Shown here: piece after piece, positions 12,242-63,336 of the stretch
Layout of the letters: every line of letters starts with the position of its first letter
Numbering within the stretch: position 1 is the stretch's first letter
NCBI GenBank assembly: GCA_009869945.1
Contig: WIXG01000228.1
Coordinates: forward strand, 62,001-126,000
Reading direction: 5' to 3'
Origin: Mesaphorura yosii
Taxonomy: Eukaryota; Arthropoda; Collembola; Poduromorpha; Tullbergiidae
DNA length: 64,000 bases
The notes under the pieces: model-generated
The model's input: only the letters and a program-made list of their open reading frames with translations
What the model was told of the DNA's origin: nothing
Database searches by the model: none
Program-made: the position numbers and the translations under genes

Positions 12242-13475
12242 TTAATCTGGCAAGGAAGCAAGCCAACCTTCACCTTCGGAGGTCTCGGACATGACGATCG
12301 AGTGGTCGGACGTCTGGAGCATTTCAATCTTGTAGGAGAGTTGTTCGTTATTGAGATGAAGCTTGTCATTTTCATTAGCTATTTGGTGCATGGACGTCTC
12401 CATCTCGGTGAATTTTTCCAGGATGCTATTTTTATCTGTCTTGTTCTTCTCAACCTGCGCCTCCAAATCTTCAACCCTTGCGTGCAGAACTTTGTTTTGT
12501 TCGTAAGCAAAATTTAGTTCATCATTTTTAGTCTGAAGGTCCAGCAATTCCTTCCTCATATCTTTAAGGTCTTGATTTTTCAACTGAAGCACGACCTCCA
12601 GTGACTCAATTTCTTTGCGGAGGATGTTATCTGGGATCTAAACAAAGACACCAAATTATTAGCAACGAAGTTCTATTAAACTGTGCCCTTGTTCTTAATT
12701 CGCATACATTCTTAGTTTGCTGCTCTAGCTTCTCTTCATGCTTGCGCTTCAGTGTGTCAATTTTCGACCTGTACACGTTTTCCAATTGGTCGATTTGGAG
12801 TTGGCGGTTACGGGCAATCTCCTGCAGCTGCAATTCTTGACCTTCTTTTACTAAAATAGAAAGAGAGTTGGTCAAAATGGGCGCACGTGGAACTTCGTTG
12901 GAAAACAAATCATCTCTACTTACATGCATCCAGCCGTTGATTCAGGCTCCGAGTTTCTTCGTCATGCTTTTCGATGATTGTACGAATTTCTTCCCTGTGG
13001 CATTCACGCTCTCGTTCTAGTTCAAGTATAAGCCCTTCCAGCCGATTTTCTAGCTCTGAAACTGAAACAAGCACAGAAGGTCACAGCTTTTAAAGTATTT
13101 GCCAATAGCAAGCTAAATTTTATGATATTTTCCTCACTTTTCCCATCTCTCGAAGTAATCTCACGGTTTAGGAGAAGCTTCACTTTGTCGATCTCAAATC
13201 TCTGATTCTGCTGCAATTCCTTCACCTCTTGGACATGTGCTTCTTTCACTGTAAACCATACAAACGCAAGACGGCTATATTATTTTGAACATACAATGCT
13301 TTCTATCATTCAATCAAATCAATCTTACGTGTGCTAATCTGGGCCTCCCACTTGGATTTCGTATCGTTCAGTTCTGACTCGTGGCGACTTGCTAAGGAAG
13401 ACAATTCTTCGGCATGGCATTGGCGCTCTCGCTCGATATCGGCCAGCGTATTTCGAAGTAGTTCTTCATTTTTAG
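12242..13475 (-). CDS. common 3' coiled-coil exons of the MTUS-like gene
   Basis: Five exons shared by every predicted isoform: 13329-13475, 13138-13248, 12924-13061, 12708-12850 and 12242-12637, with introns of 62-80 bases except the first. Exon 13329-13475 begins with two bases of a split codon (acceptor TTGCAG before CTAAAAATGAA), so it needs an upstream exon ending in phase 1. Heptad-type Leu/Glu/Lys spacing is visible throughout, for example SELENRLEGLILELERERE and EIARNRQLQIDQLENVYRSK. The protein ends SEGEGWLASLPD. Splice sites: donors GTAAG, GTGAGG, GTAAGT and GTATGC, each paired with a TTTAG- or TTCAG-like acceptor. Confidence 0.88.
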
Positions 13476-16400
13476 CTGCAATTGACAAGACAAAAGAGAG
13501 ACAATCATCAGATTTGCTGCAATTGACATGATAAAGGAAGCGATTCAAAAAATACAAGCATCAGTGCATCAGCATCAGCTTTTTGCAATAAATTAAAACT
13601 ATGCTGAACTTGAGAAACGCAGTTTAAAGAAATCGTGTGCGACTGCCTGTTCCTCCCAAAATTGGTATTCCTAAGAAGTCATCACCTGCCTAATTCTTAA
13701 GTTCACAGTCGGCCGTGGAGAACTTTAATTCTGTGTTCGCTTAGGGAGCAGTCGAGAATGTGTTCGGTACGTTACGTGCTCTTTTTAACTTTGCTGCACA
13801 GCCAGAACAGAACTCATAACGTCCCTGAAGTATTTTGACTTTCGTCGCTCGCGTGGGATTTTAACAAGAATACATTAACTATTGGAATTTTCGCATATGA
13901 TTTTCGGATGCCCATAACAAAAATTGCAAGTTGCGATGATACATTTAACTATTTCCTTATACGATGCCTTGTTTACGATTTTTACATCAACTTTTGGCCA
14001 TTTAAACGCTTAACCGTCACCATCACCAAACCTTTAACTTTACGCATGTCGTCGCCGTTTGTCTGCCTGCAACGAAGCGCATCATCTGCCAAAATTAATT
14101 AACTACAATACACCGCTAAGCACGGTTAGGCGAGAGTGATGTCATTTACCATCAGACTTGTTATCAGAGTCAGTGCTATTGGGTAAGGGAATGTGCTCGG
14201 AATCGTCCGAGTAACAAAAGGTTCCGCTGTCGTCGAGCGATATGGAGTTGGCGTGAGATGAAGCTACGGAAGAACTAGATGAACCCAACGAAGACGACCC
14301 CTCGGGTTGACTAGTCGGCGAGGTGTACGAATACTCGGGCCTGGCAGTTACCGTCCTCGTCTTAGTACTAATTTCCTTACATAACCGATCACGGTATTCA
14401 ATCACTGTTTTGTTTTCCCCGTCACCACCACCAACGTTATCACTGGAGGGCGGAGGGGCCTTCAACCCTTCACGGACTTCATGATTCGGCCGTCTCTCTT
14501 CTTGATCTTCACAGGAGTTTGTATTATCACCGGAACCATCAAGTCGCCCTGAAACTTCTTCCGATCGATTGTCAGTCAAGAGTGATTTAATGTTGATAAG
14601 ACGGAAGTCTTGCTCGGCAGGAACGTCCAGGCTTGGCTCTCTCGTAGCAATGCCGCTGCTTGTCGCCACGAGTTGATCCGGTGAAACATAATCCAGGTCA
14701 AACACTTCCAGAATTTGGCTTGACCCATCATATGGCTTGCTTACATCGGGGCTTTTCTTCCATTCTTCGAGATCTTTCCCAAATACGCTCTTATAGTACC
14801 TCATTGGCTCATCATCAATATCATTGTTCAAGATAGATGCAGAATTTGACGTAATCGCGCTTAAATGCTGCAGAGACGCCGTGGCTCGAGCCCTTTCTTC
14901 CAGGTATTCAGTTTTCGTGATGGATACAGAGTAAGTCTTCTTAAGCGCAGACTTCGACGACTTCGGATTCAGCGTTTGTCTTGTCTTGGATCGGATAAGC
15001 TGAGGCAGCCATGATCGGCTGGTTGCCAGATTCCCCTGTGAAACGGCTCCAGCACCTTGAAGAACGGATTTGCTGCTTCTTTTCTTTGACGCCCCACAAC
15101 CCGGGAAATGTATCGACATAGGCATTCTGATAACAAACTTAACAGCGGTTACCTGATCTAACTAAAATTGAATAACTAAGGAATACTAAATGAAAATAGG
15201 ACAGTTTCACCTAATCACAACACGATAATGGATACAAAACTGAGAATGTTCAACGCTACTAACAAATTGTGAAACTTCCACCGAAAGTTGATTCACTCAG
15301 CTTCTCAGACTAACTTGCACTTGTAAATATCCCAAAGATAACACGTTGTTTTCGGACTCTTAATCGGAGAATATTCAAGCTTATATCCGAGTTGAAGATA
15401 CTGGCGAAATAGGCGAAAGGTGGTCGTGCTTACAGTAAACTCTCCACTTCACTATCACTAGTTAACTGGCAAACTTTTTGGAGGTTGTGCTGGGAACGAC
15501 AACTTCACTACGGAAATATCTTTCCATGATAATTTACGCAAATTAGCACTCTGAGACGCGGCAAGCGTCGAGCTTCGATGTTAAGCGTTACGACTACGAG
15601 TATCGTGTGACAAGTGCGAAGTTCTCATTTGAGAGATGAGGCGAAAATGAGAATGAAAACCCAAATAGAAAAACACTGACTGGCTGGCTCGGGACAGAGA
15701 GACAGCACAGAAGATGCTGGCTTGACTATTCATTGTACAGACACACAGCGCAATAGCAACAATAATAATCGGCATCAAATACAGCGACCGTCTGCAGAGT
15801 ACAACAATAAATGCATAGTTTAGAGAGCAGAAAGTGGGTACACGCACTGTTAAAGTTAAAGAGCTTAATAAGTAATTGCAATTGCAGCTCATACTTTGTA
15901 CTGGTATTTTATTGCGAGGAACTGCAGCTCATCGCCATCAGCGTATCGTATCGTTCGCGTACGTGCAGGATAATGGGAAAATCGTGCAAAATGCGAATAC
16001 AAAATGCAAAAGATGCCTGCCAATTTTTTGTCTATGTGTTTGCGTCTTGCAGGTTCTTATCTAACGAGCATCATCGTCAGGAACACATTTCATCGTCCAT
16101 CCGTCCGCCGAGATTCCGCTCGAGGAAGAATGAAATGGATACACAGTTTGAAATAAAAATAATTCACTAATGCAAGGTGCAATGACCATTTCTGTATACA
16201 AACGGACTACGGACGCATGCTTTCATGACACATTCTCGCCGTTTCTACGCATACGCATGTTCGGAGGGCGGACAGAACAACGGACCCACATTCTGGCTGC
16301 TGGCTCATAAATATTTACGGCAGGTAGTTGGCACACTCGAGAACAATGAGTGCAGCTAAATTCAAATTTTACATTTGTCCACCGTCTCAGATGCACAATG

Positions 16401-19400
16401 GAAACTACATTCACACAACGACATTCTTGACATCACAATTTGGGAGGTTTGTAATTTGTGCAGTGTAAAGTTGGGCATGACAATCGCAGCACATTGCACA
16501 GGTGGGATTGTTTTTATGGCTCTTCTGCACCATTTTGTCCCACTCGCATCATATCCACACCTTTGCCTTGACCGACCAAATCTCATTCTCATTCATAAAC
16601 GAACTCGGCACTCGTCCCAGGCGTAATTATAATTTGCGACTGCACTGCGAGTGCACTGCCAAATTTAACCAGGCAATAATTCAAGTGCGGACACGACAGT
16701 AAACAGAATGCTAATGCGAATGGATCCACGTACTTGATTTATGGGCTCTTAATAATCGGTCGGTCGGTCGATGATGATATAAATGGACATGCAGAGATTA
16801 ACTCTCAAAGTCAATTCAAATGCGGTTGGGATTCACAACTTGTGAACCTTGAATTTCAGAGAACGAATTTGTGAAACAAAAGTAAAGCTTGGTTCATTAT
16901 GCATTGAGAGGCGAGAGAGGAGAAGAGGCTATAAATAGGCATCCATTAGTTTATATTGAAATTGACAGCAGGGTTGATTGCCTACAATGCAATATTGGAG
17001 TACTGAATTACCGAAGCCACAAACACAAGAAGATGTAATTTGCATCGCTGTTTTTGCTTCCGGCTTTCATTCTCTTTCCTTTCCTTTCCCGTACGTGCGT
17101 GCAGCGCAGCAATTCGATGACAAATATGCATCATGGCACGAAGATTAAGAAACACAAACTTGAGGTCTTAAGTCTGAAGCGGCCAGGCTGAAGACGCGAA
17201 AGACGAAGATGAAGATGAGTGATGAGAGTACGTGAGCGATTCATATTCTCATCGGTTTGCGATTGGTACGAGTATCATCTGTCCAATGAATGTGGAATGT
17301 TATCACATCCCAGAATCAGTAGTGTAGAACAGGCGAACAAGGCAAAATACAAAATGCTAATTCCATCCAAATGCCAAAATATTGCGAAGATTAGCCCAAC
17401 CTTTACATTGCATTGTCTGTTCAAATTCAGAATTGCCTCACCTGCCTCGCGAATTGCGATGCGATGGCTGGCGGACAATTAAATCTAGGTTTATTTGTTC
17501 TGAAATGGGAATAAATTCACGAATTCGCAAGAATGAAATCCTTACATTTCATTGTCTGCGGAGTAAATGAAGATGACGAGTACGAAGACGAGGACGAATT
17601 AAGTCAAGTTGGGGAAAACAGGTTTTAAAGATCACGACATGACCAACTAAAAACTACTTTGTGTGTTTCTTAATCAATAATCATCATCATCAGCTCTCAG
17701 ATTGCATTGTGCAGTTCTCAGCGGCAGCAAATCAAGTGGCAGCAACTTCATGGGCAAAGCATGCACAAAGCTTGTTGCTTGGTGCGAACCTCACATGTAT
17801 TTAGTCTCCTTCGTCAAGAGCAAGACCTGTTTCAAAACTTCTGCACTCTAATCTGCAAAGTGACTGTGCGTGCACTCAATGGGAAATTGGATTTTGCACT
17901 GCACAGCAGCGTTTGGCCAGGGTAGCCAGAATTGTGTGATCAATCAAGTCGAAAACTAGTTCAATAACTACAGACTGCGATAATCTGCCCGCAAATGCTG
18001 AATAAAATTAGAAATGCCTTTACATGATGAAAGAATTCTTGTTACTTGTTTATCCGGCCATAAACCATGCAGTAATTGCCTTGTTTCAAGTTTCATGATG
18101 GTAATTATCTATAAAAGTTGTGTTTTGTCGATATTTAAATTTGAAAGGCCTGGCTCATGACGTGGTTGTGAGTGGGAGAATTTTCATTTGAATTCTGTGA
18201 CAGGAATTCAAAAGGAATCCAAAACCTGCAGCAAATTCCAATGTGACAGAATGACCATGAGTACGGCAATCCAATCACTTGATCGGTGAGGCCTGTGACA
18301 TTTCGAAGAGGAATGAGCAAATGGCAAATAAACTTGAATGAACTGACATCAAGTGGGCAAACACTTCAAGCTTAACAAGCACTTCAGAGCATTAAATGCG
18401 CCTTTGTCTCATGCTGGTCATTAATTAGAGATTTGGTTCCTGACACCCTGTGAATATTTTTAGCATTGACAGCAAAAGGAAAAATACCAGAATAAAGTTG
18501 GGTGTTGACCCAAATTTTTCACTGAGCACAGAAATCATGAGAAAACAAGCAAGCATCAAATATGCACTGTCAACGTAACCTCGCATAAATGTGACTAGTG
18601 AAATTGTGATAATAAGAAGCAGATTAAGCCTAATAATAAAATGAAAAGTATTTTCAAGTGGTCGGGCCATGCCTAAGCAGCAATAAATCGTTGACTCGCG
18701 CTTGCCCATTCCACATTCACACTGCGAACGAATTATGACGATTGACATGAAAAATGAGTTAAGAGATTAGGAAAGAGAAATCATGTTTACACCCTTGAAG
18801 AATTAGTGAGCTCATTTGTCGCAGCTCCGAGTCAAAAATTGTACCTTGGCCATGCATTAATGGACAGATAGTCAATGAAAATCTCATCAGAGTCCCTCCA
18901 CAAATGCAAATGCAGGCGAGAAAGAGCAAGGAACATAAACAAGTATAAATGGAACAAATTAAATAAATATCATTCATTACAATTCAATCCCGTTACACGA
19001 GCCTCAGTTCGGCATTGGCTTTGTTCTGCAGAGAACGCAACAAAGAAAGTGGCACAGCACGCGTGCATACGAAATGAAGAACGAATTGGAGCATTGTCTC
19101 GCAGCATTTTCCCATTTCAAAAACGACCGACAATGAATTAATAATAATTGTAAATATTGACACGGGACTTCGCATTGCGGCGCAGCACGGCGCAGAGAAT
19201 ATTTCTTGAGAACAGACAGCAATTTCAGTGACAAATGCAGACAAATGCAGCTATGCCAGTAATTGTTGCGAGTGTTTTCTAAAGGATTTCCTAATTTTAG
19301 GCTGCAGGAAATTGCATCGTGTTAATTGGTTCAAATTGGGCAATGGCGAGTACAAACTGCAAGCAGAAATTTCACGAGTCATGGTCGCGGTCGTGACGCC

Positions 19401-22400: not shown

Positions 22401-25400
22401 AATTAGAATCACAGAGCACGACTGGAATGGCACCATGAAACTTGCCTTATGGCATTACGTTTTGAAATTTATATAAAACAGTCGGCACGATGTGCTCTTT
22501 CTCTTGGAAACGAACTAATCATAATCACGGCTTTATTATCACCCTTGTCATGATCCCTGCGATGTGCACCAAGCTTACTGTTTTCTTTGTATGGCTTCAG
22601 CGCTGAATGACCACAGAGTAAAGGCGGCGCACGAAATCCTCTTAAATAGTGTCATATATCAATTTCTCCGATTTACCATTTCCTTCAGACAGACAGTCGC
22701 CTGCGCCTTCGCCATCGTGATCTTGAACATCTTCCTCGCCATGGTCATCATGGCCAAAACTATCATCGTCGTCGTATTCCGGATCGCCATTTGTGTTGTC
22801 GTACGTATTTGTGCTGTCGTCGGAGTCAGAGTAAAGTTCGTACTCACGAAAGTACGATGAACCGAATGGAGAGGCACCGTCGTCATCGAGACTGTTTTTA
22901 AACAGCTTCTTCTCAAAGTACACTGGACTGGTCCTGACTTTGACACAGGACTTTGGTGTTGTATTTGTGTCATTGTCATTCGCGAGTTTCTGCTGTTCGC
23001 CCGGGTCCTTCATGTCATTATCCACCGCCGAGGCGGGCAAGGGCAGCTGCTCAAATTCGATAATAGACACTTCCTTGGCAACTTCCACATCGTCTTCGTT
23101 CAGAACCAGGAAGTCGTTTGCACTCGAAACGCGCGAAATCTTGTGCACATGCACTTGCAACCGTTTTCCCTCTGTACAGTCACCACCGATGCCTTTCTTT
23201 ATACTTTTTCCTATCAGATGTATATTGCTATTATGTACAGCAACTGCTTTAGACAAACTGGGACCCATTTACAAACTGGGCCACCTAAGAATAAAACGAT
23301 AAAATGTGCTCTCCTGACTTTACTCTTAATCTACATTTCATAAAGATAAAATTTGGAATCTTCGGGTAAAATTTTTAACAAAAATTTAAAAAACACACGC
23401 CAGCACTGCACAACACAGCAGCGAAGTCACAAGATTAAGATCATAATCACGTTTGATCACAGCAATTCCACTCTCAAGGAAAGGAGGATTCAGCATCTAG
23501 TCTTAATCAATTATCATATTTGGCAGTACGTCGTCATGAAGAATGCGTGTGGCGTGTGGTCGTCCGTCCCATCATATCGTCCCGACTCTAATTTAGGCAT
23601 GTTTGTGTGTAGGCTTCACTTTTTGTGGCTCATTACTTGATTATCATAATTTCTGAGTTAATTTTTTTTGCGATCGTCTCAAACGATGCCAACAAAAGAA
23701 AAATCAGCACAAAACACAAGTAGGATTGTGATTACACGACGTACAAGTTTCAGGTTGCCAGTCCCACACTTTGAAATCTGATCTGTGTTTTAGAGAAGGC
23801 AAAATTGCAACAATGCTCACTTCTCCCAAGAATGGCGCGTCACGACGTGCATGATGGTCAGGATCACAGTCGCCATAAGTCAAACTTCACTTCCTTCTGG
23901 CTTTAATTACGACTCCGATGCGACTGGCGGACTTTAATTGTCGTGTTATGTAATTGTACCCCACTACAGACGGCCGATGTGCGACTGGGTGTAAAGTGTA
24001 AAGCACCGACGCAAACCAAAATTGGACATTTTGAGACGGGGAAGTTATGCACAATTGAAAATCACTGCCGTACGTCACGATCTTTACTAACTGCCATTAA
24101 ATTTAGCGAATCCTCCTCGACTGGAGGCTATCCGTCGTGCAGTGTTCGAGCGATCCTGGCTCGTGGCTCCCTGACTTGTGACTACCACGGTGACTTTAAC
24201 TCATTTAACTCGCGAAGACGCGACTGCTTGGACGCTTTGTCTAGCAGTCGCACGCTTCGCTTCGCACGTTTTTAAAGTAATGATAACAAAATGCATGGTT
24301 CTTTAAAATTTCTACTGCACTGCTGCAGGTAAATTCTCAATGCCATAAAGGTGAGTAGTACAAAGGCAATAGAATCAGATAATTTTAATATTATTAGCAT
24401 ACACATCCGTCCTTTATTGCTGCACGAGGCTGCCACAGTCTTATTTAGGAATCTCTTTAATGTTATTTGCATAATACTTGTTCTTGTACTCTGCCCAATT
24501 TCACATTTTCAAAGTATTCACAATCATCGCTTTGCTCCGTTGTCGCTCGCATCCTCAACACTTAACATTTGTACATAGTTGTGCGTTCGTAAAAGCAAAG
24601 CAATGGCAGCTTGAATTGAATGTGATAAAATTGTATGACACGGCTGACACGATGCGTCTACGCATTTTCAGCTCCTCGCATGTCATATTTAACTATTGTG
24701 GCAACACATTTGAGCCCTCGACTCGACGACTCTCCAAAAGTTAAGTGTTTAGTTAAATGAAAATAAAAGCGCAATCGCAATGCTCGTGTACTCGAATTTA
24801 GGCAATCGGTAATGAAACGATGAATTATGTGCCTCCCAATTTCGAATTTGTAATTACTATCGCCGTGCCTCGCCTGTGTCATGCAAGCAGTAATTGAAAG
24901 AGCAAATTCTACCAAATGAAACTGAAATGAATGGGTTCAATGCTAAAAAAGTCGTAAACCATTTTTGCTATTGCTGTGTCCGCGGCATCGAAAGAGGCGA
25001 CAGATAGTGTTTGAAGATGATCAAAATCGAAGGTCTGTCAATATTTGGCAAATGCGCCTGCGCATTCGCATTCGCGGTGAAGATACAAAGTTATCTGTGA
25101 TTACGAACTTAGCTTCATGAGGCATGACTCGCAAGCTACACGACCACGAATTCTGACATTGACACGCTTGCTGTATATAGTAATTTTAGTTTGACTTCAC
25201 TGCTCAGCTCGCCCGACTCCTGGACAACGAAGCCCATTGTCAGGTGTCGGTATGGCTGCATCCTGCATCTTTTGACTCCAAAGTTCAAATTCAAACCGCA
25301 AACGTTTTGCTGTTTCACAGTTTCACGTACCATTAACAGATTCGACATTCGAGTGTTCAATCTCTCCGTAAATCTCTTTCATTGTATTGCATCATAAATA

Positions 25401-28400
25401 CACAGTCGACTGATTATTTAAGGATTACTTTCAGATGCAGCGGTGCGCTGAGTAAACAAACCACGCATGCTTACGCACGTAGGCGCGTGGCGGAAGATGC
25501 GTGGCCGCGCCACAAGGCTGTAGTTGCAGATGACAATCAAGTAGTAACGTGACATATTTCATCTAATTTTATCCCCCGACAAAGAAGACAAAGAAGTTCA
25601 AAGGAGTGCCAATACAAACCTGCTCTTTCTCGCCGGATCCGGTCCAGAATCATCAAATAATGAGCATTATTATTCCCAGTGTTTGCACTCACGGTGGGGC
25701 TGTTGCCTGAGTTTGAACTCGGTGCACTCGCACCTGCACTGCTAAAGTGCACTGAACTGGGAGCAGGAAAGTCCATCTTAGTCCACTAAAACATTCGACT
25801 TACACTTGATAAAATTGTCCTTGCACCTCACTTGGACTTTAATCAAAAAATCCTTTGTTAGGTAATCCCGATGGCATTCAAGTCGCGAGTCTCCATCACG
25901 ATGCGTGAACTTGACAAACTGAAATTAGGACTTTGACTGGATTGACTTGGAGTTATTTTACAGTTTCTCCCAAACGTTCTCCAGCCCGACATCAGTTCGA
26001 CGCATGTTAACTCGAGTACGGGTTTAAAGAATGCTGTTCGTGCCGGAGCATAACTGGAAGCCAAGAAACCCACACAGGTATTTTGTATTTATGGCAGGCA
26101 TGCAGGCAGGATTTTATCGTGAAATCAGACTACGCAACAGGTAAACAAGCATAAAAACAATGGGCGCAACAGAACCACGGAATAATAAGAGCACCTGATT
26201 GAATTCTAATGAGAACGTAATCAAATATGCCGAAATGAAGTGCATGTACGTGACGAGCTAAATTTGGTGGTCTTTAATTTTGTGCTGTGCTACGCACAAA
26301 CCAGACATGGCAAGGCCAGAAACGGTCTGAGTTCATCCCCAACAATGGAATTCAATGCGAAGAACAGGCGAATCCAAAGAATAGGGTTGTCGAGATTTCG
26401 GCGAGCTTGTAAGCGAAAACGTTTAGCCTTGACACATCAACGGAACATCGATGCGGAATTATTTCTGGTGAAGAATGAATATAGAATACAACCCAGCTGA
26501 ATTTTAATTAATGAGACACTAAAGATGATCGTTATAAATGCAGCACAGCTTGAAATGCATTCCTCACTCACTCGCTCACGCCTTGGTTCTTCGCGTAATT
26601 GAATGACAAATTGATTACGGCCACAAATTATCATTGCACACCATAAAAAGTGAATCTGAATGCGAATGCAACAAATTACTGGTTACAATACACGTTTACC
26701 AATAAAAAAAAAGCAGTGGTACGCATACGCGTACGTGCGACTGTGAAACAAAGGCGATTTGACAGGGAGGCTGGTCAATTTAAAAGAAAAAGCCTCCACC
26801 TGTCATCTCTTTACATAAGCAATCATCATTCTCTTACATCAATGAAATGACTGCGCACGTTCCCAAAATTCAGAGGTTACAAACCAAATTGACCAAGTCA
26901 AGTCAGCTGCAGCAACAATTCATCAACAATAATATTTCATTGCACCGACTTTAATAGCAATAGCAATAGTCTTTCTAATGAGAGGGTCAGTTTGCGACTG
27001 GTGAGTGAAAGAGAAAGGAACACACTTCGCGGGCTTGTACACATTTTGCAAATTCATGTTACATGATGGGCAGTCAAATTAGTCGTCGTTTTAATTTGTT
27101 GTCACGTTCTTTGTATTGTCTACTCGCGTAACCTTCAATTTCTTGTTCTCGCGATGCAAGACGCATGAAAATGAGCGGCGTAACGAGCGTAAATGCATCT
27201 CGACACGTCATTTTTCTCATTTCAGGAATTCCTTGCAAATTACCCGTGCAAAAGAAAGTCGGAGTCGGCTGTTATAAGGTTTTGTTCAGCTAGTAAGCAA
27301 TTTCACGAGTAATTATGCAGCGAAATGAGCGAATTTCTAATTCCCCCTACTTTGGGAGTAACTCTGGTCATTTTCATAAAGCTTAAATTGCAAAGCAATC
27401 AAGAGCTCAAGCAGGATGAGAAAATGAGTGCTTAACTCCACTTGAACTGGAGTAAATTAAAATGGCATTCAGATAACGAGCGTCGCTTACCTCTCGTCGT
27501 TTTTGAACGTGTTGTCATGCCACCATTGGCTGTCGTCACGACTCCGCCGTTCTTGAGAGCGTCGGCGGACTGACTCGCCGCCGATCCATTGTTGTTGTTG
27601 TGCAGGTTGCTCGTACTGCTGAGGTGATTGTTGCTGCTGCTACTGGTCATCTTTGTCCCGTTGCTAATCTTACTACTTGGTTGATTGTTCTCATTCTGAC
27701 TAATGCTCGTGGGAGTTGTCGCCGCCGTTAAATTATTGCGTCTACGCGTTGCGGCTGCGGCTGGAACGTGAAAAGTAGAGGTTTGATTGTTCTGGTTTCT
27801 CGCTGGAATCACTGAAACCAAACAACAAGGTGAACGGTCAAGATTTCGTGAGGGTACCGCTGAACAATGCATGACACTTTGGTCTGACTTGAATTCTATT
27901 AATTGGATTCAGAAATGTGTCTTCCGCGACCATGGACTGTGAAACAATTCTCTAAACACTTCTCACATTTCCCGTTCTCAGACAACAGAGAGACTTAAAA
28001 TTTAGCGAGACGCTTTTGACACCCGCACAAGCAAAGTAAGAATCATGAATACAGAAAGACAAAAATCTATGTTCCACTTCACTCAAGCAAATTAACGCGT
28101 CTGACCTGGCTTGTTTGGGTAACAGTACTACAATACTCGTAAGAATTCGCTCAGTTAGCAGTGATGAGTTGGTAATTTACGTGTTACTTGGAACTGAAAC
28201 AGGAGCAGACTGCGGCGTGCGGAGATGATCGTAAAGCGAATTGAGAAAGATGAGTGAATGACATGAACAATAAATATAATTGGCGTTATGCTGCAGTTGG
28301 CTGGCATTTCGTCGGCATGCGTAATGTGTACGTCCATTGAGACCTCACAAATTACGCGTACGCGTCTTTTGTCATCGCAATTTGTAGTGAGAGCAGAAAC

Positions 28401-31400
28401 CGAGAGACTGAGTAGCGAGCTCTCAAGACTTGCGAGTGCATGTGCATCACACTTCATTGGACATGTGCAGCGAGAAAGAGTAAACAAAAACGTGCAATTT
28501 CGTAATTTAGTAATATTTGGTACTCTCACGAACGTACGTGTTCGTATTGCTCTCACATTTTGTCTTCAGATGGCAAAAAATATTGTAAGATTTCTTGTGT
28601 AAACGGCGAATTCGGAATAACTTCCAATTCTAATCATGTACGGTTTAAGTTAATTCGAGTAAACAAGCAGTCGAAATCGTCAGTTTTGCTCTTCATCTCT
28701 AAAATCAATATTTTCCATATCGCCACACCACAACTCATCGTTCAATGCAATCGCCCAGTGTTTCACATTCTTTAAGATAGCGACACACATTTCATGAGTC
28801 AAAATGCATGCTTTACTACAGAAAAGAACTGTCAGATGACTAAATTTAAGAAATTCTAGATAAATTCTGTGCTAACCTGGTGCAATCGCAGTTGTACTAT
28901 TGGAACGTTGAGTTTTTTGGAGCCGAGTCAATCTGCTCGCAGCACCTGTCGAACTGTCATCTTTGTGAGAGTTCGCCCGTTGGTTAAGCTGTTGCCGGGT
29001 CGACTGTCGAGTGCCGCCACCACCCAGCTCATCTATGATGGACGATTGGATCTTCGTTGAGGAAACAATCACAGACGCCGGTTGCTGACTTTGCTGGATT
29101 GTCAGCGACGAGGCGGACGAGGACGATGACGAGCAAGGTTTCGGGTTCGGGGCGAGAATGTGACTCTTCCGCGCGCTAGGCTTACTGAGACTGCTGATGC
29201 TGAAGGACCGTCCGTCTCGTTTCGTACCAGCGCTGCTGGCCCGGGACACGTTTGTGTTGGTGGCCGACGTTGCGGTTGGAATGGCTGAATTGGGGCGACT
29301 GCTCCCATTGCTGACATTTGCTGCATTGTTGGCTTGCACTCGGAGCGCGTTCCTCTGCGTTACGGACGCCGTCGAAACACGGTGGTGTTGAGTTTGTCGC
29401 GGCGTCGACTTTTGTGTTTTGGGAGGTACGATGTGACCTGGAACGGTTGGACACATTGTGGCGAGACGAGTCTGCAACAGAACAAAAATCACAAGTCATT
29501 AGAACATCGAATCCCACATTTCCTGCTACTTCTGATCGTCATTCTAATATCAGTCTTATTTACAATTGCCAATCAATTTTTGTGACTTACAAAACCAAAT
29601 CTTGACGGCAGCTTTGACATTTTGTGTGGGTCGCCTTTAAGTCAACTTTATTTACTTGTGATTGAATGGAAATATTTTAATAAGCAAGTGCACGAATTCT
29701 AGAAATTTTGGTCAATGATATTTCAACGCACTGCTCTTATTAACTAGAATGAACCCTACCAAAATAATCTCTATTTTGCCCTGCGTTTACATAATAAATT
29801 GCAGCAAACAACGCTCCTAGCTACCAAATTATGAAATGGTGAAGAAATTCACACGCAAGATCAACAACACTTCGGTCGGATTCTGGATCGAGAATACGGT
29901 TTTCAGCTTCATTTCAGACATGTTTTATACAGTTTGCGAGTTAATATTAGAAAATAAAAACGAATATGAGATGACGTACAACTGCACCGTAATGCAATGC
30001 ATTGAATGCGTGCTTTCAAAACAGTCAATTAAACTGGGTTTTACGAATCAGAAAGAGTCAGGGCAAAGGTGCAGTTGGTAATGCGTACCTAATTTAAGAC
30101 CTGTCAGCCTGAGAAAGAAAAGTCAAGTCATGGCATGAGTCTGAGATGATAAATATGAATACGTAATGAAAATAACAAAGGCGATACGAAATACGAAAAA
30201 GTCGTAAAATCCCGCAGATCATAAAAATAAAATATTTTAGCGCCCTTCACCAAGATTGGAAAATGAGCGAGAGGATCTTTGGAACAACAATGGATCAAGA
30301 GGGAAATAGTTACATAGCTTCCATATTTGGACAACTGAAAAACCCCTCGTCTGCCTCTCGCATTATGAATGCTCCACTCATGTGCTTATTGCCTGTTATT
30401 TTTGTTCACTTCACGGGCACGAAATCAAATCAGAACCACCCTAAGGAGTTCAAGGAAGACTTGCTGCTGTGCAAATTCTGAATGCAATGCAGCACGACTG
30501 AATTTGCGAAAATCCTGTTTGCAAATTTCATTAGTAAATGACGATGGGGAACATTTACCATACAAATTTACAATCACACCTTGAGCTGAAAAGAGCAACA
30601 GGAACATAAAATGAGCATTACTCGCTGAAAATGAAGAGAATCTAATTAGAAATGATGGCTCAAGAGCTGTACATCAGCGAAACGAGGGTTTGACGAGTCT
30701 TCAAGATTCAAAGATGAGTAACTAAAATGCGTATTTCGGATCGAGAATAAACGTCATCGAATGGAGGAAACTAAAAGATTGCATTGAGATTTCAATTCCA
30801 AAGTTGCAAATGAGGTATCGAAGCGAAACTAATTCAAAAGTACAAGGAAATGCTGCTCGTTAAAAGTGAGTAAAGATTGACAGCAATTTGTACGTCTTCA
30901 AATTTGGGCATTTCATTTAGCCGATTCGTTCATTGCCGAATATTTTATAGATTTCATTTAATGAGGCTTGAAGTAAGCCAATTTACGTGCAAATGAGAAA
31001 TTCGGTCGTAAAGTCTAAAGTTCTCGCATTTCCGTCCAAGTGTCATTGCGTGAAAATTGCAGTTAGATGCAGAGATTCACAGCATAAACGTACTGAGCAG
31101 TACAGCAGGAATTCCGACGAGTTGCTCATTTGCCACAAAGACCAGAAGTATGTAATGAGCACGACCTGCACCGGCATGCCATATCAGACAGACAGGCAAT
31201 GCCCGCAATGCAATGCGATGGTTTACTTTACTTTGGATCTTTGGAACATGCGTTTAACAAATCCAACATTGTTTTCGAATGTTTGTTTTACGAATCCTAA
31301 AATAAAAACGAAATGAATTTCTGGTCTGCTCCCCAAAGATAACTTTCAATTATCCTCATAAACTTTTCTGACTGACACTCACTTTATGCACGCATGCATC

Positions 31401-40400: not shown

Positions 40401-43400
40401 GCGTAATTAAAAATAGTGTATTCAGATTTAAAATACGCAAATCGTAAATACGAGTTCACTTCGCGTACGTTTCGGGCCTCATTTGCACGCTTTTCAATGC
40501 AGGGGACTGCAGAGGATGGCCTGGTCTGGCCGTTAATGGTCGTTAATTTCCAGGTTCCATTGATTTACTTTGACAAGGAGAATTCAGCACAGATTTAGAG
40601 CAAAAAGCCATTCGGGTAGACAGCAAGACCCCTTTGGTTGTACGTGAATTCCAGTCACCGCCATTGGGCCAGCGACCAAGACCCTTCTAAATCTGTCTAA
40701 ACCAAAATTGAAGTGTGCTAAAACACATTGACATTGAAGTTCAAGGAAATAATAGAAAGCATCATACAAATGATTTGCGTGCGGTCCGCGGACGCAAAGC
40801 AACTTGCGGCTTTGAACCAGATCTTCACTCTTCGCTCCTATGATGGCGATCACAATTTTGCACGCTTTACACTTGCAAGTAGTGAACGATGAATTTTAAT
40901 ATGTTAAGCTTAACTGGTGGAGTCAGCGATGTTCGGTAAATATGGGCCAGCAAATTATTGTGATTATGCAAGCTGAAATGATGACTCCTCAATTCAAGCA
41001 TTCAAAGCATGTGGACCTGAATTTTCAAACTCCTTTTTCGTCGAGTCAAAGCAAAGCAAGTGTTCAAACTTTATCTTGTGTGGTACAAGAATTTTGATTG
41101 ACTTGAAAATAAAGGCACGAGACCGGCCGTCCACGACGATTTTGATCATATTTGTACAGCGGACTGCGTAAAGCTGTAATTAAAATCAGGCATGAATACG
41201 CACGTCGTCGTGGTACGCAGCGTTCACTGTGCACATGCAAATGTAGCACAATTCAGGACAAAAGGTGCTTATTTGCTGGCGTGAAACGCGCGTACGTGCT
41301 GCACGAATGACGAGCATTTCTCCTTACACGGAAAACCACATTATTTAGAAATGCATCGTCTTCATCGCCTCACAGGCGATTAAATTGCAAAGTGTGCAAA
41401 GGTGGCTAGCAAAGCAGTACAAGATCTAATCGGTCAACACCTTTCCATCCGCCTTGCTTGTTGTGTGCGTTCAGAACTGCACCCGAGCGCGTGTCGTGTC
41501 GTGAAAGGCGTACAGAATTGTGTAATTTGATTACAAGTACAATGGAAATTATGGCTGTGATTACAGCCGAGTGAATTGAGTCATTTGTTCGACATGTACG
41601 AGCTTTGCTCGTAGTAAACGTTAGGTTTTCCGGGCATGGCACGGGCTCAGGAAGAGGAACTCGGTCAAGTATATAAAAAGTAAAGCACATTACACGCAGA
41701 ATGCAACTTGGTTCAGGTGATGCGATTTGATACTGACATGAAGGAAACTTTATGACAGGTGGAAGCAGGAGAGGAACGGAAAAGGAAACAATCAGAAAGC
41801 AATTATCGCAACGAAAGCCATATTACAAGCCATAAAATTGGCACCAAAGTTCGCTTGCCACAATCCAACGCCTTTGTTTCCAATTTGTAATGGGCACGAG
41901 TTGTGCGCAATTTATGGACGCGAATCGTGTGCTTGCTTGTCGCGTTGCACGATGCTCATGTTTAAAAAAATGGAGACACGTAATTCCTGCTTTCCTGCAA
42001 TTGTTATCGTGCAAAATTTTGCAAAAAAATATAGAACGAGGCTCTACTGAGAATCGAACTCAGATCGCAGGATTCAAAGTCCTGAGTGCTAACCATTACA
42101 CCATAGAGCCGTTCCTGGAGAAGACGAGCAATTTTCTTAAAGTTAACAGCAGCTGAACATTAAGCTCATGCAAAAGTTAAGAAGAATTGCAATAATAAAA
42201 ATAATAAGTAATAAAAACGTGCAAGCATGCATATAGTGCAGTCGGGCTAAAGAAAGTGTTGATGCTGCAGTTTTATAGCCTCGGTTGTGACTGACAGTGA
42301 CACCGGCTGTCATTATCGCTTGGCCTCTGACTTATTTACAACCTCGGCTCGGGTCACACTGCCACTGTCTTGGCTTGACTTACTCAATTCAGCATTGATG
42401 CATTGTATTGCGATTGCAACGACGAGCTTAAGCTAAGCCAACTTGTTCTTGGGAATTTAATTGAATCGAAGCTACAGCGATTCATGTCGTCTAATTTCAT
42501 TGCAAATTTCCAACCAAGGTTCTATGGTGTAATGGTTAGCACTCAGGACTTTGAATCCTGCGATCTGAGTTCGATTCTCAGTAGAACCTGTGTCCTACAT
42601 TTTTGCAAGATTTGCATCGCACTCGCTTGGAGAGGGAATAATTTTTTCAAATGCTCTATTGAAAACTGCGTATTGACTGACACGGTTTGCTCATCCAGAA
42701 TGACCAAATTTGGGCGAGTAAAACAGGAATCTAGCAGCAGATATGTGCATTCTTAATTGATCTGGTGATAAGAGAAAAAATTCAGTCCTTTTAAGAATTT
42801 TATGATATAAAATATGCGAAATTATAGCCTTGTTTCTTACATATTTCAGGTTCTCTCAAGTTAAATGCATTAAATGTGACTTTTGGTTATCAATCCAATT
42901 TGCAGATCACATTTCGAAGAAAGGTTCAGATCGAATAGCGAATACTAATCAAATTGTGATTACTTGACGGAAATAAAGGCAGAATAATTACTACAAGCAA
43001 ATAGCTATAAGAAACAAAACACTCCATGCAATGCAGCGTTCACAAATGCTGTCCTACGGTTCGTTAGTTTCGCATTGTTGCTTGCTCGAATTGAGTTTGC
43101 GCAGAATCTTAATATTTCCTATTTTATCTTTTTCTGAACGCCGAGACCGAATCGCGGCCATAACAAGCTCTGAACTTCCGTTAGTAAAATTTGCGCAATC
43201 TTCTGGCATAAGTTTTTCGTTTTGTACATGGTTCAGGGGACAAAGCGGAAGTGAGAGAAATCTGTCTGAAATATTAAGAAGCAGGGTTTAATGAATTTGT
43301 GAATTGTTCCTTCAAGCGAGCACTTTTATGACTGTGAATAATTACCGAAAAGCAGAAATTCATAAATTCATGTGAGCCAGTGCAGTCACAAATGCAATTG

Positions 43401-46400
43401 TTGCATGTGCTGCGCCTTTGCAGAATTTTCACATGAACGCTTTGTCATAATCAGAACTGGCACATTTGTGCCGCAGCTCACTTCAAAATCGTCACCGTGC
43501 ATTCTTGCCTAGTTTGCTCGACGGCCCCCTCGTGCATTAGAGTGAGAGTTCACCTAATCCCGGCTTAAAAACAATTGACACTCGCGGCATAAATAAATAC
43601 AAAATGACTGCGGCAGCGCGGTTGCGGTGCAATTTCTATTTCTATATTTTAATAACTCTTTTACTCGACTCCTTGACTTTCTACTGCAGTGTGGCAAGCA
43701 GGTTGAGGTGACAAATTATTAGAGTGAAACCAAACACATATTATTTATCAAAAGAGAGAACAGGTTAATGGTTTTCTACCGCTGCGCTACGGCTTTTGAC
43801 AGCGAGACATTCAGTTAGCATTGAATGCATGCACGCAGTGCCATTGCTGCTTCGAGTCTCAGAACTGACTTCGAGCAGCTCAAGGCAAGTAATTATGAAA
43901 AGTTGCTGATGGCTGATAAATGCCATTAGCACATCATATCAAATCGTAAATTTGTGGCCGTTCCATTTACGAGCAGTAGCAGCTTCTTATGTCAAAGCAT
44001 CTTCGCAATCGCAATCGAGATTCAAAGACTGACCACGAAAGATGTGATTTTTATCAACGTCCACCCAAATTCTAATCAGAATTCTTTTGCATAACTCTTT
44101 AGCTATGAGAATACATGGGTTAAGCGAAGGCTCGCATTGTCATCCTGTCAATTGTCACAGCGAAACTACCGCTGCCGCTGCCGCTGCTGCTGCTTATGAT
44201 TAAAAAACGAGTGATTTCGTCACGCAATTGTGGTTCAACTGTCCTTGACTTTTACAGGAAAAACACCGCCGTTGCTGTCGTTGTCTGCCTTGCTGCCTTG
44301 CACTGCAGCATAAGCTTTTAACTTTAAGCTCTTGTTTGTTTCATCAATAACAATGACAAGAGTTTGCCTTATTTCTGAAGCAGAAATGGTGCAGCATTGA
44401 ATACGGCAGGCAGACATGGCAGTTTGGTGTTGCCATATGTTGCGTGTGGCATCAAATTATTTATAAAATTGCCGAAACTCTTTTGTAATTCATGCCGAAT
44501 CACATGAACTTCAGGCTGGACTGGTGACTGCTTTCACGTGTGAGAAGCGGTGCGTTACGCGTTGCATGGCGGCATTAACCATTTTAATCCATATCGATCT
44601 CAAATCAAGAGAACCCTGCTTCTTTTTGCATTCACCATTCATGCGACGAAGCAATAAAGCAGAGCCAAAAGTAAAGGGGTTCCCGAAGCTTTGTAAAATG
44701 CGAAATCCAGCACGGCATGCCAGTTTAGTTTGAGTCGATCGTGAATCCTTCTGATGCGCTACGAAAATGCGGGCATTGAAAATGGCTGTGAGCATTAAGT
44801 AACCCACTTCGTGACGTGCACCTGGGAAATTATTAACAACAGATTTCCTTTGCCTGGCAGATGCATTCAATGTCTCCGTCTCGCTTTGCCACGCTGTGCA
44901 GAGTGCAATTTCAATCACGATGCCATGTGCGCAATTCCTACGCAATTATTCACGTTTTTGTCTCAGCGCTGCGTTTCTGATTTGTGTCTCACTAATTAAC
45001 GATCGCTGTCTTGTGTATTTTGACGTATACGCCTCGCTTAGGCTTCAATGCATTTCATTGACGACGTAGGCCACCGTAACGCTAGAAATCGAAGTCGATG
45101 AAGTAAAATTAGTTATTCGTTTGAAAATAGAATCAAACTGAGCCTGCCGGACAGCGTCTTCCTTTCATTCCACATTTTGTTATTGAGTTATGATGCATTT
45201 TCCCAATATTTACGGGTATAACACGGGCAGGCTCATCATACTCATCAATCATCAAGACTGCGTTATGTTCTGCCTCTACCGTGAACATTTTCATGCAATG
45301 CCGCGTGGAGATAAAATAATTAAGCGAACGGTGTAAGAAGAGACAGGAATTATGGGCTGTCAGTTTCAGACGGATAGTATTGATTTTCTCGTCAGATAAA
45401 CTATTTTTATTACCGCTGTAGCAGCTGCGTAACTCGCAATCAGCGTCAAATCGTCAATCGCGTACAGTACAGGAGTCAAAAAATCCTTGTCGGTTGTTGT
45501 ACATTATTTTAGGCAATCGATTCTCGAATGCGAATAATGAGGCCAGTCACTTGATACGTCTCTTGCAATGCTTTGCTTTTCCGTGACTGCGATAGCGATT
45601 ATGTGATTACCGTCCGAGAGGTTCGCAATTTGCCCTAAAACTAAAACGAAATGGGACGATATGAATGTCGGCCGCTTTGAGTTTTGCCGACTGCGTGCGA
45701 AGTGCGAAATCGCAAATCTGCGCTTGCATGCTTGTTATTGTTTTGTTAATAGGATTGCGTTTCTTGCAAGCCGTGCTTATTGGTCAGTTAGCGAGTAACA
45801 AGTGTGAAGAATTCGATTTATTTGAAAATTGTCAGCTGACGCAATTCGTAAATCGTACGTAATCAAAAGCTGTACAATTCATGGTGGCAATGCAGTGCTT
45901 AAATTGTCCTTCAGGGCCTAAAGCATATCGTAATTTGTGTACCAGAGATTTCAATCCCAATAGAAACTGAAACAGTAGAAATTATGCCAACATTCGAGAA
46001 ATTGAGAGCTCGAATTCGCGAATCTTTCGAAATCTTTGCCAGGGGTTTAGGTTTGGTTTTCCCTCTGTAGTTTCCTAATTTCCCGTCCCACCACAACAAT
46101 AGGAGTGCGTACTTTGCGTACCATAGGAGGCCAAGTTTTCAACGGTACCCATTTTATGTTTCGCCATCTTCATCCACCCATGAATGAGCAATAAATAATA
46201 GAATTGCAATTAACTGTAACAGCAACAAACATTTGAGTGGTGCACAACACAGGGGTCTAGATTGCCGGAGAAAAGAAATTGCATTCTCTTTGTGGCAGTG
46301 GTAAATTGGGTAAGTTTTGACTTGGCAATTGTGCAATTGTATAGTTGTGCGCTGAAGAATGACGATCTCACTGGCGCAGTCAGTTATCATTTTAATTACC

Positions 46401-46702
46401 CAAAGCAGAGAGAAACGAGATTGTTTTACCTTCTTGACGTTGTGCCCACCACCGCCGTCGCTGCCAATGCCAGCAGCACCTTGAGATCGACTGAGATTCG
46501 AGACGACGCTGACGCTGTCGCTGTGAGCGCTTCCACTCCGCGAGCTGCTCACGCTGACGCTGCTGACTCCTTTCTGCATTGTTGCGAATACTGGAATAAT
46601 GGACGAGGGCGCTGAGGATGTGAACTCCACGAGTCGTGGGTCGCTGTTGCGCTCCAGCACAGTTTCGAGTTCGACTTCTTCGTTCGTAGGCGACAATGAC
46701 AT
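12242..46702 (-). CDS. MTUS/ATIP-like microtubule-associated coiled-coil protein (longest supported form)
   Basis: Minimum long form: exons 46430-46702, 28877-29471, 27491-27811, 13329-13475, 13138-13248, 12924-13061, 12708-12850 and 12242-12637, joined in frame to 707 residues. The N-terminal two-thirds is Ser/Thr/Asn-rich and presumably disordered; the last 311 codons are almost continuous coiled coil. The final exon (132 codons) follows the layout of the MTUS1/ATIP C-terminus: a leading LRKEIESLEVVLQLKNQDL segment, like the LKSVLEMKN segment of vertebrate MTUS1, and near the end NENDKLHLNNEQLSYKIEML, like its terminal MENEELLWKL helix. From family knowledge this suggests a microtubule-binding protein. 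Two SxIP-type EB1-binding motifs, SIIP and SAIP, occur in the upstream exons. The assignment rests on remembered similarity of coiled coils, which can mislead. Alternative first exons are listed separately. Confidence 0.72.
14150..15125 (-). CDS. alternative first coding exon d (MPMSIHF...)
   Basis: An ATG at 15125 opens 325 codons plus one base, ending at a GGTAAATGA donor in phase 1, exactly what exon 13329-13475 requires. The joined isoform has 636 residues. The encoded segment is hydrophilic, with a basic N-terminal part (KKRSSKS, KSSKSALKK), a middle segment with FGKDLEEWKK, and a Ser-rich acidic end. I recognise no domain. With only about 0.7 kb to the common exons, it could be the first exon of the most proximal promoter. 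It might also be an exon of a longer form, but no acceptor in phase is evident before the ATG. Confidence 0.8.
15126..22676. other. intron, nothing recognised
   Basis: Intronic for the upstream isoforms of the MTUS-like gene and also the promoter side of first exon d. AT-rich with many short low-complexity words (AAATGC, GCGAAT). No exon, RNA gene or transposon protein is recognised. A short CGGTCGGTCGGTCG run lies near 16757-16771. Confidence 0.5.
22677..23268 (-). CDS. alternative first coding exon c (MGPSLSK...)
   Basis: An ATG at 23268 opens 197 codons plus one base and ends at a GGTAAAT donor in phase 1, matching the common acceptor at 13475; the joined isoform has 508 residues. The N-terminal third is basic (GKSIKKGIGG), the C-terminal third very acidic: Asp/Glu-rich runs such as YDDDDSFGHDDHGEEDVQD, with several SDSDDS-type sites typical of casein kinase 2 targets. 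No catalytic or fold motif is visible. Reading on past the donor gives only a few codons to a stop, which supports use of the splice site. Confidence 0.75.
23269..25619. other. intron and promoter side of first exon c
   Basis: No coding feature recognised. The tracts 23880-24270 and 25180-25390 are open in one or more frames but show no family resemblance and have no plausible splice boundaries. Confidence 0.45.
25620..25776 (-). CDS. alternative first coding exon b (MDFPAPS...)
   Basis: A short first exon: an ATG at 25776, 52 codons plus one base, then a GGTTTGT donor in phase 1 that fits the acceptor at 13475. The joined isoform has 363 residues and is nearly all coiled coil. The exon encodes a Ser/Ala/Asn-rich leader followed by LMILDRIRRERA, whose amphipathic charge pattern continues into the coiled coil. 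The short length makes chance more likely than for the other first exons, but the phase match and the clean ATG support it. Confidence 0.62.
25777..27490. other. intron, nothing recognised
   Basis: Sequence between first exon b and the 27.5 kb exon. No coding or RNA feature recognised. Confidence 0.45.
27491..27811 (-). CDS. internal exon of the MTUS-like gene (Asn/Ser-rich)
   Basis: A phase 1-in, phase 1-out exon (321 bases, 107 codons): acceptor TTTCAG before TGATTCC, donor GGTAAGC. It joins exon 28877-29471 to the common exon without changing frame and could be skipped without changing frame. It encodes VIPARNQNN, a stretch of basic residues (ATRRRNN), long Asn/Ser/Thr runs and a basic end (MTTRSKTTRG). 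No domain recognised; the composition suggests a disordered linker. It could also carry microtubule-contacting basic patches, which is inference. Confidence 0.75.
28877..29471 (-). CDS. internal exon of the MTUS-like gene (Ser/Thr-rich, SxIP motif)
   Basis: A 595-base exon, phase 0 in and phase 1 out, with acceptor GTTGCAG and donor GGTTAGC. It fits between the phase-0 donor at 46430 and the phase-2-base acceptor at 27811. It encodes about 198 residues rich in Ser, Gln, Thr and Arg: TRLATMCPTVPGHIVPP at the start, NSAIPTATS in the middle, a polyserine tract of six, and basic clusters (KPSARKSH). SAIP matches the SxIP signal for EB1-type plus-end proteins. An internal ATG at 29456 could start yet another isoform if the exon is used as a first exon. 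Confidence 0.75.
29472..31803. other. intron, nothing recognised
   Basis: Intron of the long isoform. An open frame at 30.99-31.32 kb (plus strand, Cys-containing) was examined but has no family resemblance. No RNA gene seen. Confidence 0.45.
31804..32055 (-). CDS. candidate cassette exon with SPIRS repeat
   Basis: Between acceptor CCTTCAG (at 32056-32057) and donor TTAGTATAT (at 31802-31803) lie 252 bases, exactly 84 open codons in phase 0-0. That is the phase needed for insertion between exon 46430-46702 and exon 28877-29471. The first 30 residues are an imperfect repeat of about 15 residues carrying NSPIRS twice; the rest is basic (SRKTKDRKQER). The underlying DNA repeat is visible at about 31975-32075. 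The donor is only moderate, and a stronger-looking GTTAGT four bases earlier would break the phase, so this exon is a proposal. Confidence 0.4.
32056..35244. other. intron, nothing recognised
   Basis: Part of the long 5' intron of the MTUS-like gene. Open frames near 33.2-34.1 and 34.3-34.6 kb lack family resemblance and splice support. Confidence 0.45.
35245..36365. mobile_element. inverted-repeat-bounded insertion, possible non-autonomous transposon
   Basis: The 16-base word ATCTCGAAAACGGTGA at 35245-35260 recurs inverted at 36350-36365 with one mismatch. Between them lie about 550 bases (35.38-35.93 kb) that are unusually C-rich and purine-poor on the plus strand, unlike the AT-rich intron around, then a tandem repeat of about 123 bases. 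The only sizeable frames are short and interrupted, so no transposase is encoded. No clear target-site duplication was found at the outer edges, and the true ends may lie outside the inverted words. Class unknown. Confidence 0.45.
35949..36295. repeat. about 2.8 copies of a 123-base tandem repeat
   Basis: Copies start near 35949, 36075 and 36198. The second and third are clearly related (both TCTGAACGGT..., then TTCACGATTTTGC, then TTGAAAATTTGCAA); the first is more diverged, and the third stops after about 98 bases. Spacing between copies two and three is 123 bases. The array lies inside the inverted-repeat-bounded segment. Confidence 0.7.
36366..42038. other. intron, nothing recognised
   Basis: Continuation of the long intron. 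Two neighbouring minus-strand open frames at 36.4-36.96 kb could not be assigned to any family and have no clear splice sites. The rest is AT-rich non-coding sequence. Confidence 0.45.
42039..42110 (-). tRNA. tRNA-Gln (TTG)
   Basis: A 72-base tRNA with all four arms. The acceptor stem GGCTCTA pairs with TAGAGCC, with discriminator T. The anticodon arm is CAGGA-CTTTGAA-TCCTG, giving anticodon TTG (reads CAA, glutamine), and the T arm carries the B-box GTTCGATTC. The D arm contains TGGTGTAATGGTTAGCA (A-box region). There is no intron. On its strand a run of seven T (42023-42029) serves as the RNA polymerase III terminator. It lies in the large intron of the MTUS-like gene, on the same strand as that gene. 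Confidence 0.97.
42111..42517. promoter_or_regulatory. spacer between head-to-head tRNA-Gln genes
   Basis: These 407 bases separate the 5' ends of two divergent tRNA-Gln genes. Nothing else is recognised in it. Confidence 0.6.
42518..42589 (+). tRNA. tRNA-Gln (TTG), second copy
   Basis: A 72-base tRNA nearly identical to its neighbour: the acceptor stem is GGTTCTA/TAGAACC, so a C-G pair at position 3-70 in the first copy is a T-A pair here and pairing is kept. The anticodon arm, anticodon TTG, D arm and T arm are the same. A T5 terminator is at 42600-42604. It is on the strand opposite to the host gene. Confidence 0.97.
42590..46429. other. intron, nothing recognised
   Basis: First part of the long intron after exon 46430-46702. 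A short CCGCTG/GCTGCT run is at 44170-44194. No exon or transposon protein recognised. Confidence 0.45.
46430..46702 (-). CDS. distal first coding exon a (MSLSPTN...)
   Basis: An ATG at 46702 opens 91 codons ending at an AAGGTAAAAC donor in phase 0, matching the phase-0 acceptor at 29471 (or the candidate cassette at 32055). The segment is acidic at first (NEEVELETVLE), contains SSIIPVF, which fits the SxIP EB1-binding pattern, and then a long Ser/Val/Gly-rich tract ending GHNVKK. No other domain is seen. Its intron to 29471 is about 17 kb, so the transcription unit covers at least 34.5 kb. Confidence 0.72.

Positions 46703-55699: not shown

Positions 55700-63336
<7,637 letters not shown>

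What the first reader, a model, noticed from the sequence alone, without database searches (positions are those of the whole stretch)
13329..46702. One coiled-coil tail served by at least four alternative first exons spread over about 31 kb
The exon at 13329-13475 needs an upstream exon ending in phase 1. Four separate upstream exons (14150-15125, 22677-23268, 25620-25776 and the chain 46430-46702 / 28877-29471 / 27491-27811) all end in that phase at GT donors, and all four starts are in-frame ATGs. The predicted proteins share the same 311-codon coiled coil but carry unrelated N-termini: acidic, basic/Ser-rich, very short, or Ser/Asn-rich with SxIP motifs. Vertebrate MTUS1 is known to make isoforms from alternative promoters; an arthropod counterpart with this architecture is, to my knowledge, little described.
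Basis: partly seen in the sequence, partly recalled or inferred. Interest (0 to 1): 0.72.

Follow-up and report, generated by a model that had tools for sequence, protein, structure and literature searches.

The report
Arthropod MTUS1-like gene, alternative starts
An arthropod gene possibly related to the human microtubule gene MTUS1 appears to attach several different front ends to one shared rod-like tail, much as the human gene does; it looks like a new member of a known kind and still needs RNA evidence.

Summary
The exons are at the stated coordinates, open and phase-compatible: 4 of 4 donors feeding the exon at 13475 are in phase 1, and 311 codons are shared. Support is uneven. E1 (325 codons) and E2 (197 codons) are much longer than chance gives; E3 (52 codons) is at chance level. 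E4b and E4c have strong splice sites, but the 17-kb E4a-E4b join rests on phase alone. A minus-strand exon scan ranks pieces of E1, E4a-c and the five coil exons as its nine best candidates; no other strong exon appears. E2 cannot be an internal coding exon: a stop codon directly precedes its ATG. Coil, E1, E2 and E4b each match only this locus in the genome. The last coil exon resembles the human ATIP1 coil (sequence recalled) well above shuffles, but genome-wide E-values are weak, 0.35 and 3.4. Best reading: a probable MTUS-family gene with at least three alternative N-termini, the layout known from mammals. Promoters and splicing are inferred; no RNA was available.

The parts
14150..15125 (-). 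E1: alternative first coding exon, 325 codons, Ser-rich N-terminus (basic start, acidic remainder), phase-1 donor
   Evidence: 0 of 200 simulations reach 300 codons; only match in own genome
22677..23268 (-). E2: alternative first coding exon, 197 codons, strongly acidic, phase-1 donor; TAA directly before ATG
   Evidence: 2 of 200 simulations reach 197 codons; only match in own genome
25620..25776 (-). E3: possible short alternative first exon, 52 codons; unproven, at chance level
46430..46702 (-). E4a: distal first coding exon, 91 codons, phase-0 donor, holds SIIP motif
   Evidence: link to E4b by phase only
28877..29471 (-). E4b: internal exon of the long isoform (or a start at its ATG 29456), phase-0 acceptor, phase-1 donor, holds SAIP motif
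   Evidence: acceptor in top 0.04% of AG sites; the scan preferred another phase-1 donor, 28946
27491..27811 (-). E4c: internal exon of the long isoform, phase-1 acceptor and donor
   Evidence: (donor in top 0.14% of GT sites)
13329..13475 (-). c1: common acceptor exon, first exon of the shared coiled coil
13138..13248 (-). c2: shared coil exon
12924..13061 (-). c3: shared coil exon
12708..12850 (-). c4: shared coil exon
12242..12637 (-). c5 with 3' end A: last coil exon, stop at 12242, AATAAA at 12126 and 12118; region matching recalled human ATIP1
12016..12077 (-). 3' end B: alternative last coding exon joined from donor 12274, ends TFTPSSQRRSKFYNSSSLT-stop; AATAAA at 11866
   Evidence: (acceptor in top 0.48%, donor in top 1.68%)

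Best explanation
This is a single-copy arthropod gene, probably of the MTUS (ATIP) family, spanning about 35 kb on the minus strand. Five closely packed 3' exons encode a shared coiled coil whose last 100 residues correspond to the C-terminal coil of MTUS1. At least three alternative coding starts (E1, E2 and the E4 chain) are spliced through phase-1 donors to the common acceptor at 13475. Transcription probably starts separately upstream of E1, near E2 and upstream of E4a, so each isoform carries a different N-terminus on the same dimerising coil. The inferred mechanism is that the coil mediates dimerisation while the N-terminus sets location: the E4 form, basic and with two SxIP motifs, would bind microtubules or EB1, and the acidic forms would act elsewhere. 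An alternative last intron or intronic polyadenylation gives two C-terminal ends. Shown: frames, phases, E1 and E2 lengths beyond chance, one matching locus in the genome, coil similarity above shuffles. Inferred: promoters, splice joins, disorder, dimerisation, protein functions.
For: Phases and open frames. E1 and E2 lengths far above chance. Codon scores favour the claimed frame in 10 of 11 pieces. The exon scan ranks pieces of this gene as its nine best minus-strand candidates, 55.3 down to 9.8, against a plus-strand maximum of 16.0. One matching locus in the genome for the coil, E1, E2 and E4b (E3, E4a and E4c not searched). Arthropod origin from 66 Chitin_bind_4 matches. Recalled human ATIP1: whole coil 177 against 100.6 +/- 11.7, 0 of 1000 shuffles; last exon ungapped 24 of 99 identical, score 108 against 40.2 +/- 6.8, maximum 86 in 500 register-preserving shuffles, 55 for the reversed query. 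The 267-residue ATIP1 coil gives one match at E <= 10 in the genome, this exon, and a reversed control does not find this exon. Heptad periodicity: 10 of 2000 shuffles reach it. Human MTUS1 has the same layout.
Against: No RNA, cap or protein data. E3 is at chance level. HMMER with bias correction gives E = 24 for the coil against ATIP1. Genome-wide E-values are 0.35 and 3.4, no better than the chance matches of the reversed control (0.87 and 1.45), and another place scored marginally higher (17.4 against 17.1 bits). c1, c2 and c3 each score below the three best plus-strand controls, and the scan's site thresholds were set low enough to admit the gene's weakest sites. No TATA-like site and no clear excess of Inr-like sites upstream of the ATGs. 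The first 30 codons of E1 score as neutral. The confidence was lowered from 0.7 in the draft to 0.62 after the E-values of the reversed control were set beside those of the real query.
Confidence: 0.62

Rival explanations
1. Alternative exons on a common leader: transcription starts only near 47 kb and the exons are chosen by splicing rather than by separate promoters.
For: Acceptor 16 nt upstream of the E2 ATG. E1 has an in-frame phase-0 acceptor at 15035 that fits the phase-0 donor of E4a, and its first 30 codons look non-coding.
Against: E2 is directly preceded by an in-frame TAA, so it can only be a first coding exon, fed at most by a non-coding leader. No acceptor scoring above 2 lies within 150 nt upstream of the E1 ATG.
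Confidence: 0.2
2. E1 and/or E2 are separate single-exon genes nested in the large intron: both frames stop soon after the donor.
For: Counting the codon split by the donor, the stop is the third codon past E1 and the twelfth past E2. An AATAAA lies at 22537, 105 nt past the E2 stop, and an ATTAAA at 13729, about 410 nt past the E1 stop.
Against: Both end at a usable donor in the phase of the common acceptor. There is no AATAAA between E1 and the exon at 13475 (one search list).
Confidence: 0.12
3. A coiled-coil gene of another family; the MTUS1 likeness is general coiled-coil similarity. (This rival concerns the family name and can hold together with alternative starts.)
For: phmmer after bias correction E = 24. 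Genome-wide E-values no better than those of a reversed control. Pfam gives only a weak TolA-trimerisation match far below its cut-off. No PDB match at E <= 10.
Against: Gapless 99-residue match well above register-preserving shuffles; this exon is the one locus returned by the longer query and is not returned by the reversed one.
Confidence: 0.3

Closest known systems
Vertebrate MTUS1 (ATIP1, ATIP3, ATIP4)
   Same: A shared C-terminal part with coiled coils (395 residues in PMC3566609, 396 in PMC8147298; passages seen) joined to alternative N-termini by alternative splicing and alternative promoters (also PMC2706840, outline and section 5). The C-terminal coil is alignable without gaps to recalled ATIP1.
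   Different: The shared part is 302-311 residues and divergent (24 of 99 identical in the best stretch). N-termini were not compared with those of vertebrates. Promoters are untested here.
MTUS2 / TIP150 and Xenopus ICIS
   Same: TIP150 is listed as recruiting MCAK to plus ends, with ICIS as Xenopus counterpart, and SxIP as an EB1-binding motif (PMC3513837, passages); the E4 isoform carries two SxIP motifs.
   Different: No sequence comparison with MTUS2 or ICIS was made here. EB1 binding is inferred from four-residue motifs only.

Membership tests
MTUS1/MTUS2 (ATIP) family | C-terminal coiled coil homologous to MTUS1 | tested here: inconclusive
   For. Against: phmmer E = 24; second of three matches, E 0.35; reversed control reaches E 0.87 and 1.45 elsewhere. 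The human sequence was recalled (436 aa).
MTUS1/MTUS2 (ATIP) family | Several N-termini on one shared C-terminal coil | tested here: inconclusive
   Met by sequence: E1, E2 and the E4 chain all reach 13475 in phase 1. No transcript shows the joins.
MTUS1/MTUS2 (ATIP) family | Alternative promoters | not testable with these tools
   No cap or RNA data; CpG, TATA-like and Inr-like sites uninformative.
MTUS1/MTUS2 (ATIP) family | Microtubule or EB1 binding | not testable with these tools
   Only motifs: two SxIP in E4, reached in 1.2% of 5000 composition shuffles.
MTUS1/MTUS2 (ATIP) family | N-terminal homology to ATIP3, ATIP1 or ATIP4 | not tested
   No separate comparison with vertebrate N-termini was made; Pfam finds no family in the E1, E2 and E4 N-termini (E3 not scanned).

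The most novel reading that the evidence does not exclude
The alternative-start, shared-coil layout of MTUS1 predates the split of arthropods and vertebrates (or arose twice), with at least four starts and two 3' ends giving a combinatorial set of microtubule adaptors in an arthropod.
Probability: 0.25. Interest if true: 0.5.

Novelty: new member of a known kind. Interest (0 to 1): 0.35.

Why it matters
If confirmed, MTUS1-type isoform diversity would be open to study in an arthropod with a small (93-Mb) genome, and one could ask whether exchange of N-termini on a constant coil is the ancestral way this family is deployed. For annotation, it warns that a long-intron gene in a compact genome may hide several unrelated-looking N-terminal exons that belong together.

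Tried and rejected
The first codon model collapsed to 5 training ORFs (1771 codons) and was discarded; under it 82% of null ORFs had a summed score at least as high as E1's. One search replaced it (37 ORFs, 9958 codons). E3 as an established exon: rejected as unproven; a piece of it ranks tenth in the exon scan, at the level of the plus-strand controls. Relatives in viral contigs: 4 pattern matches, none confirmed. Solved structures: none for the coil at E <= 10; a fragment of the recalled human coil gave three weak matches, E 0.2 to 1.9, to KIF3B and REST corepressor 1. Haplotig or paralog comparison for dN/dS: not possible, because the coil, E1, E2 and E4b match only this locus. Promoter signals: nothing distinctive. 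Literature: in searches for MTUS1 with Drosophila and ortholog (9 papers), with invertebrate (6), with Caenorhabditis (7), and for 'microtubule-associated tumor suppressor' with Drosophila and homolog (10), no listed title or abstract start describes an arthropod MTUS1 gene; only one of these papers was opened, at a passage (PMC5839585), and the entry there is the human protein. One search was too broad to use, and one search found 0 papers. A structure prediction of E1 was still unfinished and contributes nothing.

Full report
Setting. The window is part of contig C228 of a 93-Mb, 1127-contig genome. The genome holds 66 matches to the cuticle family Chitin_bind_4, so it is taken to be an arthropod. 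The species was not identified.

Observation. The exon coordinates were reproduced. The acceptor at 13475 needs one base from upstream, and the donors at 14150 (E1), 22677 (E2), 25620 (E3) and 27491 (E4c) each supply one. The joined frames are open to the stop at 12242 and share 311 codons. E4a to E4b is a phase-0 join across 16,958 nt, E4b to E4c a phase-1 join across 1,065 nt, and E4c to c1 spans 14,015 nt; the coil introns are 70-80 nt.

Is it more than chance? Of the listed stop-to-stop ORFs overlapping 13476-49000, four have at least 190 codons (339, 208, 207 and 203: those of E1, E2, E4b and E4a), all on the minus strand. In 200 simulated strands, first-exon-like frames with a phase-1 donor reached 300 codons in 0 and 197 codons in 2, but frames of at least 52 codons occurred 1.9 times per strand on average. 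E3 is therefore not supported by length, and it has a better donor inside it at 25734. E4b (193 codons from its own ATG) and E4c (127) would also pass as first exons in that listing. Codon scores favour the claimed frame in 10 of 11 pieces; the training set was small (37 ORFs, picked by length rather than by known genes), the scores are modest, and E4b and E4c are near-ties.

A scan for exons with both splice sites (list cut at 18 per strand) returned as its nine best minus-strand candidates E1 (from 15035), E4b (to a donor at 28946), c5 (to 12274), E4c, E4a (from 46590), c4, c2, c3 and c1, scoring 55.3 down to 9.8; the next are 9.1 (a piece of E3) and 9.0. The plus-strand control gives 16.0, 13.4, 10.9 and lower, so the large exons and, barely, c4 stand above it, while c1, c2 and c3 do not on their own. 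The site thresholds were chosen low enough to admit the gene's weakest sites. E2 is absent from that scan because it cannot be an internal coding exon: TAA directly precedes its ATG. The splice-site matrices and promoter motifs were general ones recalled from memory, not trained on this species.

Start or splice choice? E2 has a good acceptor 16 nt before its ATG; E1 and E3 have none scoring above 2 within 150 nt, and E4a has one of 2.03 at 68 nt. E1 has an in-frame phase-0 acceptor at 15035 that could be fed by E4a, and its first 30 codons score neutrally. Thus, if translated, E2 has its own start, E1 probably does, and whether each has its own promoter cannot be decided from sequence. CpG, TATA-like and Inr-like features were uninformative.

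Copy number. The coil exons, E1, E2 and E4b each match only this locus in the genome; E3, E4a and E4c were not searched.

Family. Pfam and PDB gave nothing useful. Human ATIP1, recalled and 436 residues long, aligns with the whole coil at 177 against 100.6 +/- 11.7 in register-preserving shuffles (0 of 1000 reach it). The last coil exon aligns without a gap over 99 residues, 24 identical, score 108 against 40.2 +/- 6.8 with maximum 86 in 500 shuffles, and 55 for the reversed query. In the whole genome the 159-residue C-terminal query ranks this exon second of three matches (17.1 against 17.4 bits, E 0.35); the 267-residue coil query returns this exon alone at E <= 10 (E 3.4; 12 candidates scored). 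The reversed control does not return it, but returns two other places with E 0.87 and 1.45, so the E-values themselves do not exceed chance; what speaks for the match is that two real queries lead to this exon and that it is gapless. phmmer with bias correction gives E = 24, while blastp of the pair gives 3e-6. I judge membership of the MTUS family likely but not proven, and lowered the overall confidence from 0.7 (draft) to 0.62 on setting the control's E-values beside those of the query.

Comparison. Human MTUS1 makes ATIP1, ATIP3 and ATIP4, identical in the last 395-396 residues, by alternative splicing and alternative promoters (PMC3566609 and PMC8147298, passages; PMC2706840, outline and section 5). 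The layout here is the same in kind. TIP150 is listed as recruiting MCAK to plus ends and SxIP as an EB1-binding motif (PMC3513837, passages). The E4 N-terminus has two SxIP motifs, which 1.2% of 5000 shuffles equal or exceed; the E1, E2 and E3 N-termini have none.

Addition. Donor 12274 joins acceptor 12077 in frame and replaces the last nine residues (EGWLASLPD) by nineteen (TFTPSSQRRSKFYNSSSLT); each end has AATAAA downstream (12126 and 12118; 11866). So 302 residues are common to all predicted products.

Verdict. The architecture is well supported at the level of sequence for E1, E2 and the E4b/E4c exons, weaker for the E4a link, unproven for E3, and of a known kind.

Noticed in passing
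window 12016-12077 and 12242-12280: Alternative 3' end of the coil gene (spliced last exon or intronic polyadenylation), each with AATAAA downstream.
   Followed up: yes
   Followed up: partly
window 49848-51266: Long minus-strand ORF (472 codons) with a weak Tudor-domain match (E 5.9e-6, no single stretch passing on its own), upstream of the coil gene.
   Followed up: partly
window 53932-54637: Two CXC (Tesmin/TSO1-like) domains in adjacent plus-strand frames, resembling a lin-54-type protein (name recalled).
   Followed up: no
window 58556-59219: Minus-strand MH1 domain split over two frames, a SMAD-type gene (name recalled).
   Followed up: no
window 4117-4887: DUF1681 protein (E 6.6e-64), a NECAP-type protein (name recalled).
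   Followed up: no
window 7991-8434: Polysaccharide-deacetylase-like exon (E 1.6e-4, just under Pfam's cut-off), possibly a chitin deacetylase.
   Followed up: no
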